Positions 1 through 25,200 of a stretch of DNA of 64,000 bases are shown in pieces. The translations under genes and the position numbers were made by a program. Location of the stretch: NCBI GenBank assembly GCA_964017155.1, contig OZ024865.1, positions 40,875,200 through 40,939,199 of the forward strand, given 5' to 3'. Within the stretch, counting starts at the first letter, position 1. Each line of letters begins with the position of its first letter. The stretch is from Oasisia sp. SBJ-2009 (lineage: Eukaryota > Annelida > Polychaeta > Sabellida > Siboglinidae). A model generated the notes under the pieces. That model searched no databases, was not told where the DNA came from, and saw only the letters and a program-made list of their open reading frames with translations.

Positions 1-1158
1 GTCGGAATCACTGACATATGACACACTACCTGACAATGTCGGAATCACTGACATGATATGACACACTACCTGAAGACATCAGAATCACTGACATGATATG
101 ACACACTACCTGATGATGTCGGAATCACTGACATGATATGACACACTACCTGATGCCGTCAGAATCACTGACATGATATGACACACTACCTGATGACGTC
201 GGAATCACTGACATGATATGACACACTACCTGACAACGTCGGAATCACTGACATGATATGACACACTACCTGAAGACGTCAGAATCACTGACATGATATG
301 ACCCACTACCTGACATCGTCGGAATCACTGACATGATATGACACACTACCTGAAGACGTCGGAATCACTGACATGATATGACACACTACCTGAAGACGTC
401 GGAATCACTGACATGATATGACACACTACCTGAAGACGTCGGAATCACTGACATGATATGACACACTACCTGAAGACGTCGGAATCACTGACATGACATG
501 ACACACTACCTGACAATGTCAGAATCACTGACATGATATGACACACTACCTGACGCCTTCAGAATCACTGACATGATATGACACACTACCTGAAGACGTC
601 AGAATCACTGACATGATATGACACACTACCTGACATCGTCGGAATCACTGACATGACATGACACACTACCTGACAATGTCGGAATTACTGACATGATATG
701 ACACACTACCTGACAACGTCGGAATCACTGACATGATATGACACACTACCTGAAGACGTCAGAATCACTGACATGATATGACACACTACCTGACGTCGTC
801 GGAATCACTGACATGATATGACACACTACCTGAAGACGTCAGAATCACTGACATGATATGACACACTACCTGACATCGTCGGAATCACTGACATGATATG
901 ACACACTACCTGAAGACGTCAGAATCACTGACATGATATGACACACTACCTGACGTCGTCGGAATCACTGACATGATATGACACACTACCTGAAGACGTC
1001 GGAATCACTGACATGATATGACACACTACCTGACAATGTTGGAATCACTGACATGATACGACACACTACCTGACGTCGGAATCACTGACATGACATGACA
1101 CACTACCTGACAACGTCAAAATCACTGACATGATAAGACACACTACCTGACAACGTCG
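1..1158. repeat. 40-bp minisatellite built from the exon 19 5' splice junction
   Basis: About 29 units of 40 bp, continuing past the left edge. On the minus strand each unit holds GACG(T)TGTCAGGTAGTGTGT, i.e. the last 11 or so exon bases plus the first intron bases of the donor at 1146-1147. One unit near 1071-1105 is shortened. Units differ mainly at 3-5 bases before the CAG. Confidence 0.97.
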
Positions 1159-1296
1159 ACTGCGCCGGGTCGTACTTTAGGGTCCTTGCCCATGATGGAG
1201 ACACTGGCGGTGAAGGAGCCGTCGATGCTGAACACAACCACCTCCGCCCTCGGCTGGAGCACGGCCAGGTAGAAGTCTACGGACGTGTGGTCGCCT
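1147..1296 (-). CDS. PITPNM: PITPNM coding exon 19, last in window (residues 1043-1092, LNS2)
   Basis: Completes R-G-D, reads [20 protein letters not shown] and ends [13 protein letters not shown] plus two bases of Arg. In lipins the same position is a catalytic DxDxT. Here it is S-I-D-G-S (1066-1070), lacking the first Asp, as expected for the non-catalytic phosphatidic-acid-sensing LNS2 of PITPNM proteins. Acceptor TTGTTCCAG, donor GTCAG then GTAGTG. The donor lies inside the first unit of a 40-bp tandem array, and the remaining exons lie off the left edge. Confidence 0.95.
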
Positions 1297-22200: not shown

Positions 22201-25200
22201 ACCAACAGGTGATGAAGATGCAGTTTGCTTCTTCAACGTCCTACATAAATCAACAGTCTACAACCAACAGGTGATACAGATGCAGTTTGCTTCTTCAACG
22301 TCCTACACAAATCAACAGCCTGCAACCAACTGGTGCTGAAGAGGCAATTTGCCTCTTCAACATCTCACAGAGATCAACAGTCTACAACCAGCAGACTGTA
22401 ATGAGTCTATGATCTGCTTCATCAGTTTTGTTCAGACGTGTGCAACCAGCAATCATCTGTAATTATGAAGCCAGACAATTGCCAGAGAAGAGGTCTGGGG
22501 TCCACTGCCTGTAATCATTAGGCCATGACAGGTGCTGCCAGGTCTTGTAATTGCTCCAGCAACATGTGCTATAATGAACACTTCAGAAGTGTACAGGATG
22601 TCTGTCTGCAGCAACACAGGAGTCCACTGGTAATAAATATACCTTCATCTTGTAGCAACATCAGCCTCCTTTCTCAAAACTACTGCAAGGAGAATGACCA
22701 AAGGGTATCATATGTGTGACAACAGGAGACAATATGTGTGACAATGGGTGACCATATATGTGACAACGGGTGATCGTATGTGTGACAATGGGTGACCATA
22801 TGTGCAACAACTGGTGACCATATATGTGACAACAGGTGACCATATCCATGACAATGGATGACCATATCTGTGACAACAGGTGAACATATATGTGACAATG
22901 GATGACCATATCTGTGACAACAGGTGACCATATCCATGACAACGGATGACCATATTTGTGACTACAGGTGACCATATCCATGACAACAGATGACCATATC
23001 CGTGACAACAGGTAACCATATCCATGACAACAGATGACCATATCCGTGACAACAGGTAACCAAATCCATGACAACGGATGACCATATCTGTGACAACAGA
23101 TGACCATATCTGTGGCAACAGATGACCATATCTGTGACAACAGATGACCATGTCCGTGACAACAGGTAACCATATCCATGACAACAGATGACCATATATG
23201 TGACAACAGATGACCATATATGTGACAACAGGTAACCAAATCCATGACAACGGATGACCATATCTGTATTGATACACATGTCTACAGTACATACTTGTAC
23301 TCTGTATTGATACATATGTGTACAGTACAAACTTATACTCTGTATTGATACACATGTCTGCAGTACAGACTTGTACTCTGTATTGATACATATGTCTACA
23401 GTACACACTTATACTCTGTATTGATACACATGTCTACAGTACAGACTTATACTCTGTATTGATACACATGTCTGCAGTACAGACTTGTACTCTGTATTGA
23501 TACACATGCCTACAGTACAGACTTGTACTCTGTATTGATACACGTGTATTAGCTTGCATTTTTATATTGAATAAACCAATCAATCCAAATCTAGATTCAG
23601 TATTTTTCATTAAATATTATTATTTACTGTTACAATGGAAGCGTGTATAGTAATGATGATTAATACATGTATACATGGTAGTCACGATGTACTCATCTTA
23701 TTATTATAAATATATATATCTATATTCTAGATGAAAAAAACCTGTTGCCTCGTGACTTTTAAAAGACTATTGAAAACCCACTTATTCCGGGCTGTTGATG
23801 GAATGTAGACACCTATCAGTTACTTATCTTTTGTACATGTTTTACACTTATTTTACAAAATGTCTTAGTCATTATTTTATTATCATTATACCAGTTATTT
23901 TAATAATTATCTTTAGCTAATTTATTTATTTTATCTTTTATTACTATTAATTTATATATATATATATATATATATATATATATATATATATATATATATA
24001 TATATATACAGTGTATATTGGATATTATTTAGATTTATGGTGGTTCGTAAATGGTCTTCCCAACATCATTATATATTTCATCTTATTATATATTTTATAC
24101 ATTTGCTCAAGTCACGACCATTCAGTTGTCTCAACAGGGTGCCTAACAACTCATTTATAAAACATCTAGTGGAAGAGATTTGACTCAGATCAATTAATCC
24201 TTCCACTCTCTGCTATAAATGAGTAATTGGCTGTGTAGTGTGTACACACAAGCAGGGATACATTGTGAACAATTGTGCAATGATTACAGCATAGCTGAAT
24301 TCTCCCCAGAGAAATTACTCTGGTGAGGGAATACACTGATCTACTGGAGGGTTAACTGTCAAGTGCTCGGTGAGGACACTAAACTAGATGTGTGAACTCT
24401 CTAATAAGGTCAGTAGAACCTCTCTATTAAGGTCATTGGAACTGGAAAGCACTGTTGCTTAATTCAAATTGTTACAATGTATAATGTACATAGACATGTA
24501 ATTATTACTTAACTGTTGCTGATTATTATATTTACTTGACATTATGTAAAATAAAGCTATTATTATAACTAAACATCTGAAGACTGTGTTAAGACATATG
24601 ACACTAGGACAGATGACACACCTGGCAGATGACTTCCTATAGCACTAGGACAGATGACACTAGGACAGATGACACACCTGGCAGATGACTTCCTATAGCA
24701 CTAGGACAGATGACACTAGGACAGATGACACACCTGGCAGATGACTTCCTATAGCACTAGGACAGATGACACTAGGACAGATGACACACCTGGCAGATGA
24801 CTCCCTATGTGGTAGATCTTGCGTGTGTACTGTCCACTCCCCCCTGGTCCGTCCGTGTAGGGCTCGTTGATGAGGATCTCCACCCCGCTCTCCTTGCCCT
24901 CGCTCTCCTCACGACTCTTCTTCTGCAAACACATCAAACACATCATTAAATACATCAAACACATCAAACACTAAACACATCAACACATTAAATACATCAA
25001 CACATTAAATACATCAAACACACCAAACACAACTAACACCAAACACATTAAATACATTAAACACAACTAACACCAAACACATTAAATACATCATTAAATA
25101 CATCAAACACAACTAACACCAAACACATCAAACACATCATTAAATACATCAAACACATCAAACATGTCAACACATTAAATGCATCAAACACATCAAACAC

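What the first reader, a model, noticed from the sequence alone, without database searches (positions are those of the whole stretch)
1..24922. Four of 19 coding exons of one gene carry arrays that amplify their splice junction: a possible general process
The arrays have different unit lengths (40, 39, 42 and 56 bp) and unrelated sequences, so they arose independently. All share the placement at an exon edge; three involve AG-GT donors and one an acceptor. Tandem duplication of AGGT segments has been proposed as an intron-birth route. Here the same event seems to recur at existing junctions and expand. Selection may keep the exon side fixed while the intron copy is free to grow, or splice junctions may be break and repair hotspots (R-loops, paused polymerase). 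I know of no description of a gene with several such arrays.
Basis: partly seen in the sequence, partly recalled or inferred. Interest (0 to 1): 0.88.

Follow-up and report, generated by a model that had tools for sequence, protein, structure and literature searches.

The report
Splice-junction tandem repeats in a tubeworm
Four exon edges of one tubeworm gene carry short DNA repeats that copy the splice site again and again; similar arrays turned up in other genes of the same animal, and the same kind of structure is already known from amphioxus, so this gene is a good example rather than an exception.

Summary
The gene is PITPNM/RdgB, minus strand, in a vestimentiferan-like annelid genome: 22 coding exons, 19 in the window. 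Arrays of 40, 39, 42 and 56 bp sit on the donor of exon A, the acceptor of E and the donors of K and Q. In A and Q the unit copies 11 and 13-19 exonic bases; in E and K only 3-4.

In about 340 kb of the same genome (101 curated exons, 200 edges) junction-spanning arrays occur at 10 edges, 6 of 158 outside this gene. This gene's 4 of 42 is not unusual (Fisher p = 0.22). Array ends do pile up at exon edges, about 4-5-fold over sites 30-300 bp away (gene bootstrap 2.1-6.9), but outside this gene the spanning class alone is borderline (p = 0.05) and depends on exon edges I predicted and partly moved by hand.

Amphioxus "mirages" are the same kind of structure and were proposed as an intron-gain route. 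Verdict: recurrent in this genome, known kind; a splice-junction-specific process is not shown, an exon-edge effect is likely.

The parts
1..51341 (-). PITPNM/RdgB gene, exons R to A (19 of 22 coding exons); three more exons lie left of the window
   Evidence: Pfam PF02121 and a partial DDHD, Ridgeia homologue, consistent phases and stop codon
1..1158 (-). Array at the donor of exon A: 40-bp unit TCAG|GTAGTG..., 29 donor copies in the window, 34.1 copies in all; 11 exonic bases shared
1147..1296 (-). Exon A (LNS2 region)
5114..5662 (-). Array at the acceptor of exon E: 39-bp unit ending GGTTGTTGCAG; 13 further acceptor copies; 3-4 exonic bases shared
4969..5117 (-). Exon E
14414..14546 (-). 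Array at the donor of exon K: 42-43-bp unit, ACAG|GTRAG in the copies; 4 exonic bases shared; first unit open in the exon's frame
14543..14644 (-). Exon K
24593..24808 (-). Array at the donor of exon Q: 56-bp unit, CCAG|GTGTGT; 13 exonic bases shared (19 with one mismatch)
   Evidence: full-identity match in the genome only at its own place
24790..24922 (-). Exon Q (PITP domain)
24926..25438 (-). Repeat of a 9-bp motif abutting the acceptor of exon Q, AG not included; Q thus has repeats on both sides

Best explanation
These are minisatellites in a minisatellite-rich genome that were founded by a short tandem duplication reaching across, or starting at, a splice junction ('mirages'). The duplication is tolerated because the copy next to the exon keeps the original splice site and everything beyond it is intron. 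The array then grows and homogenises like other minisatellites (slippage, unequal exchange) and is held on the exon side by the coding sequence. Shown: the anatomy, the tandem copies of splice sites, and recurrence in other genes. Inferred: that the exon-nearest site is the one used, and the mutational route. Exon edges hold 4-5 times more array ends than sites 30-300 bp away; the cause of that excess is open.
For: Units contain the splice site and, in A and Q, 11-19 exonic bases. Similar arrays at 6 of 158 other edges. Minisatellites are common: 10.6% of positions 40-340 bp into introns recur in tandem; 16.4% of 14 random 10-kb stretches is minisatellite, two thirds of it in two stretches, L016 and L007. 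PITPNM does not stand out. The Ridgeia protein has no extra residues at the A, E, K and Q junctions. Unit Q matches at full identity only in place.
Against: Pure chance placement predicts fewer array ends at exon edges than seen: 18 of 33 counted ends lie within +45..-29. Use of the exon-nearest site rests on the gene model, not on RNA. E and K share only 3-4 exonic bases, so for them a duplication across the junction is hardly distinguishable from one starting at it.
Confidence: 0.68

Rival explanations
1. Exon edges are hotspots for tandem duplication (composition step between exon and intron, R-loops, polymerase pausing, AGGT microhomology), so arrays are seeded there more often than elsewhere.
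For: Array ends at +45..-29: 18, against 15 in the nine bins from -30 to -299; 5.2-fold (p = 5e-6), 4.6-fold without PITPNM (p = 1e-4); bootstrap over 23 genes 2.1-6.9.
Against: Junction 20-mers are less often in tandem than intron positions. The spanning class without PITPNM is 6 against 2.3 (p = 0.052), 5 against 2.3 after dropping doubtful edges (p = 0.12), and 6 against 4.9 with weaker arrays included (p = 0.39). Five of those six edges changed in at least one masking setting of my exon finder. Edges were curated after arrays had been seen.
Confidence: 0.22
2. Selection keeps tandem copies because extra splice signals help splicing or give length variants.
For: In 3 of 9 arrays with a computable frame (K, L044, L046) the nearest decoy is in frame and open; the L046 array is open in the exon's frame throughout.
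Against: In the other 6 of 9 the nearest decoy shifts the frame or adds a stop. In array A the splice columns are invariant over 32 units, but so are most other columns.
Confidence: 0.05
3. The arrays are traces of intron birth by tandem duplication.
For: Duplication across a boundary is the proposed route for amphioxus globin introns (passages) and the reported one for a potato gene (abstract).
Against: Each array lies at one side of an intron between conserved coding exons; no segment between copies serves as an exon in the model. The age of the intron positions was not tested.
Confidence: 0.03
4. Artefact of assembly or of my exon edges.
For: Tandem arrays are prone to misassembly; eight of 21 edge cases changed with the masking of repeats.
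Against: All four PITPNM edges are stable under every masking and fixed by protein homology and phase. The moved EZH donor is supported by an Ezh2_MCSS match running to its last residue.
Confidence: 0.02

Closest known systems
Amphioxus 'mirages' (Adh3, globins BflGb6 and BflGb9, troponin C, PGBD5)
   Same: Minisatellite-like tandem duplications spanning exon-intron boundaries, at either end of an intron, many copies with AG/GT signals; units 10-72 bp in Adh3, about 150-160 bp in globins, 60 and 108 bp in PGBD5 (PMC3087553 and PMC3902484, passages)
   Different: Other phylum; longer arrays here (up to 77 copies); a sampled rate per exon edge and comparison with intron positions; splicing and instability not tested here
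Human internal tandem repeats at exon-intron boundaries in segmental duplications
   Same: Minisatellites at exon-intron boundaries (PMC2812944, passages)
   Different: There linked to alternative splicing and novel introns in recent paralogues, with RNA support; here only DNA
Intron gain by tandem duplication (potato RdRp gene; human UBC-type repeats with dual-specific splice sites)
   Same: A duplicated stretch crossing an intron-exon boundary, or AG/GT sites in tandem repeats (PMC4974935, abstract; PMC10809524, passages)
   Different: No new intron is seen here

Membership tests
mirage (tandem duplication of an exon-intron boundary) | tandem units span the exon-intron boundary | tested here: met
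   A and Q share 11 and 13-19 exonic bases; E and K only 3-4
mirage (tandem duplication of an exon-intron boundary) | occurs at both 5' and 3' boundaries | tested here: met
   spanning arrays: 5 donors, 5 acceptors
mirage (tandem duplication of an exon-intron boundary) | many copies carry AG/GT splice signals | tested here: met
   211 sites within 2 bits of the true one in ten arrays
mirage (tandem duplication of an exon-intron boundary) | exon-side copy escapes homogenisation | tested here: inconclusive
   in Q the three intronic copies agree where the exon differs by one base; only one array looked at this way
mirage (tandem duplication of an exon-intron boundary) | does not disturb regular splicing | not testable with these tools
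   no RNA data held
mirage (tandem duplication of an exon-intron boundary) | length instability between haplotypes or somatic cells | not testable with these tools
   one assembly only
intron gain by tandem duplication | a new intron formed from the duplicated copies | tested here: inconclusive
   no exonised copy in the gene model and no extra residues at these junctions in Ridgeia; age of intron positions not tested

The most novel reading that the evidence does not exclude
In this tubeworm lineage exon edges act as seeding or anchoring points for minisatellites, so that a few percent of all splice junctions carry tandem copies of their own splice site. That would be thousands of arrays per genome (extrapolated from 6 of 158 edges outside the index gene), with the spliceosome choosing the exon-nearest of up to tens of near-identical sites.
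Probability: 0.33. Interest if true: 0.62.

Novelty: new member of a known kind. Interest (0 to 1): 0.42.

Why it matters
Arrays of up to tens of near-identical donors or acceptors next to a conserved exon are a natural experiment on how a splice site is chosen when local sequence cannot decide, and a standing supply of raw material for intron gain or sliding. The edge clustering, if confirmed genome-wide, would point to a mutational or selective feature of exon boundaries.

Tried and rejected
Rejected: that the PITPNM exon edges were misread (homology and phase). Rejected for Q: that the unit belongs to a dispersed satellite (only its own place matches at full identity; 22 other matches at 68-77%); not settled for A, E and K, whose searches did not complete. 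Rejected: that four arrays make this gene special. A first Monte Carlo on uncurated exons gave 11 observed against 4.1 expected, and 7 against 3.8 (p = 0.08) without PITPNM; replaced by the edge-distance test.

Bias of my exon finder: it masks repeats and could draw edges to arrays. Under no mask, a harsher mask and a neutral mask, 13 of 21 edge cases were stable in all three, among them all four PITPNM edges; the other eight (L007, L009, L012 donor, L012 acceptor, L020, L031, L044, L045) changed in at least one. So of the six spanning edges outside PITPNM only L046 was stable throughout. The finder was trained on PITPNM and myosin cores and checked on PITPNM, so 18 of 20 internal exons exact is not an independent test.

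Dropped before the curated count: random stretches L005, L006, L008, L009, L011 and L013-L017 (no exon, transposon-like or no recognisable gene; judged by eye, not by a search), one L010 exon, exons longer than 700 bp (this removes L018, whose array starts 13 bp after its donor), duplicates from overlapping loci; arrays with period under 10 or flagged as microsatellite were not counted. Moved by hand: the donors of L007 (later supported by Ezh2_MCSS) and of L012. The L012 exons have no Pfam match (two tried) and its edges are doubtful.

Led nowhere: searches for tubeworm tandem-repeat papers; the original Adh3 mirage paper is not held; an earthworm genome paper counts minisatellites but its passages do not place them at junctions.

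Full report
What is there. The window is G000:C12:40875200-40939199 of a 764-Mb assembly; contigs C1-C14 are 42-71 Mb long. A PITP domain and a partial DDHD match and the best protein match, Ridgeia piscesae (956 of 1081 aligned positions of a draft identical, gaps included), make the gene PITPNM/RdgB and the host most likely a vestimentiferan or close relative. 764 Mb fits none of the four assemblies listed in PMC9921365 (574.9, 560.7, 1090.9 and 687.7 Mb; passages), so I do not name the species. With 20 kb to the left of the window the gene model has 22 coding exons, consistent phases, 1311 codons and a stop; 19 exons are in the window.

The four arrays. TRF confirms units and positions. Read on the gene strand, the copies carry TCAG|GTAGTG (exon A donor, 40 bp), GGTTGTTGCAG (exon E acceptor, 39 bp), ACAG|GTRAG (exon K donor, 42-43 bp) and CCAG|GTGTGT (exon Q donor, 56 bp). 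Exonic bases shared by exon and neighbouring copy run to 11 (A), 3 (E), 4 (K) and 13 (Q; 19 with one mismatch). So A and Q are duplications of a true exon-intron segment, whereas E and K begin almost exactly at the junction. In Q the three intronic copies agree with each other where the exon differs by one base, as expected if the exon-side copy is left out of homogenisation. At full identity the unit of Q is found only at its own place.

Is it general? I sampled 14 random 10-kb stretches, 30 myosin exon loci with 1.5 kb on each side, and the window plus 20 kb. An exon finder trained on PITPNM and myosin cores recovered 18 of 20 internal PITPNM exons exactly and overlapped 27 of 30 myosin cores. 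After curation there were 101 exons and 200 internal edges (what was dropped or moved is in Tried and rejected). Array ends by signed distance from the edge: +1..+45, 10; 0..-29, 8; then 1, 3, 0, 2, 2, 1, 0, 2, 4 in successive 30-bp bins to -299. Without PITPNM: 6, 8, and 13 in the nine far bins. Near against far per edge-bin is 5.2-fold (p = 5e-6), 4.6-fold without PITPNM (p = 1e-4); bootstrap over 23 genes 2.1-6.9, median 4.0. The spanning class alone is 10 against 2.6 expected (p = 0.0019), without PITPNM 6 against 2.3 (p = 0.052). The abutting class is 8 against 1.7 (p = 0.0016). With weaker arrays (period >= 7, score >= 50) spanning is 10 against 5.6 (p = 0.083), and 6 against 4.9 (p = 0.39) without PITPNM. 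Without four doubtful edges it is 9 against 2.6 (p = 0.0054) and 5 against 2.3 (p = 0.12), and abutting is 5 against 1.7 (p = 0.05). Of the six spanning edges outside PITPNM only one is insensitive to how my finder masks repeats, so the edge excess is likely, not proven.

A 20-mer centred on the junction recurs at >= 17 of 20 within 100 bp of intron at 8 of 197 junctions (two of them in PITPNM: A and Q; E and K fail it), against 1193 of 11234 positions 40-340 bp into the introns and 1 of 2777 exon positions. The intron positions are not independent, since one long array supplies many, and this measures coverage rather than founding events. But it shows that junctions are not preferentially inside arrays; they lie between exon and intron.

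How it works. The reading that needs least is a tandem duplication across or at the junction, harmless because the exon-nearest copy still splices, followed by ordinary minisatellite growth on the intron side. The ten spanning arrays hold 211 decoy sites within 2 bits of the true one. The nearest decoy would shift the frame or add a stop in 6 of the 9 arrays for which frame was computed and is in frame and open in three (K, L044, L046). Accurate choice of the exon-nearest copy is therefore needed for most, and is inferred, not shown.

Other examples. L007 (EZH gene, Ezh2_MCSS at 1.4e-30): 57-bp unit, 77 copies, 19 exonic bases and CACC|GTAAGT in the copies. L031, L045 and L046 (myosin-head acceptors; Pfam): 41-, 20/40- and 45-bp units with 25, 5-10 and 11 exonic bases. 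L044 (myosin-head donor, place matched): 24-bp unit, 7 exonic bases. L012 (no Pfam match for two exons tried; acceptor edge doubtful).

What is known. [quoted passage not shown] PMC3902484, passage). Human genes in segmental duplications have minisatellites at exon-intron boundaries (PMC2812944, passages). A potato gene gained an intron from a duplication crossing an intron-exon boundary (PMC4974935, abstract). Of my nine searches three named annelids, vestimentiferans or a tubeworm (37, 79, 83); I saw no annelid report of junction-spanning arrays in the lists, but most listed papers were seen as titles only. An earthworm metallothionein paper has minisatellites in a first intron, not placed on a junction in the passages seen (PMC12783039).

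Verdict. It is a new member of a known kind. Clustering in this gene is within what the sampled rate allows (4 of 42 against 6 of 158, Fisher p = 0.22). What deserves a full-genome test is the 4-5-fold excess of array ends at exon edges.

Noticed in passing
window 24593-25438: Exon Q has repeats on both sides: the 56-bp junction array at its donor and a 9-bp-motif repeat starting 4 bp outside its acceptor edge.
   Followed up: partly
L039 70-1270: A myosin P-loop exon (689-845) is flanked on both sides by unrelated minisatellites (16 and 20 bp) that start 5-6 bp from its edges without including the splice signal.
   Followed up: partly
L007 2440-6829: An EZH gene carries a 4.4-kb array of 77 copies of a 57-bp unit, with about 74 further copies of the donor 9-mer.
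   Followed up: partly
L046 922-1508 and L044 2127-2829: Two junction arrays are open in the reading frame of their exon (15-residue and 8-residue repeats), so use of inner sites would lengthen the protein instead of breaking it; L044 was read for 10 units.
   Followed up: partly
L016 1-10000 (G000:C13:12000001-12010000): A random 10-kb stretch is one tandem array almost throughout (9,993 of 10,000 bases), probably a satellite block.
   Followed up: no
window about 18460-18770, 20490-20800, 26290-26600: Similar dispersed copies containing GGTTCGAATCC-like sequence, which looks like a tRNA-derived SINE; read by eye from the sequence.
   Followed up: no
L002 5430-5921: A 35-bp minisatellite of 14 copies starts about 30 bp beyond the PITPNM stop codon, in the presumed 3' untranslated region.
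   Followed up: no
window 13386 and 14543 (junction of exons K and J): The Ridgeia protein reads FATGETTT where this model reads FATGGETTT, a one-residue difference at the array-bearing junction; it could be annotation or a shifted splice site.
   Followed up: no
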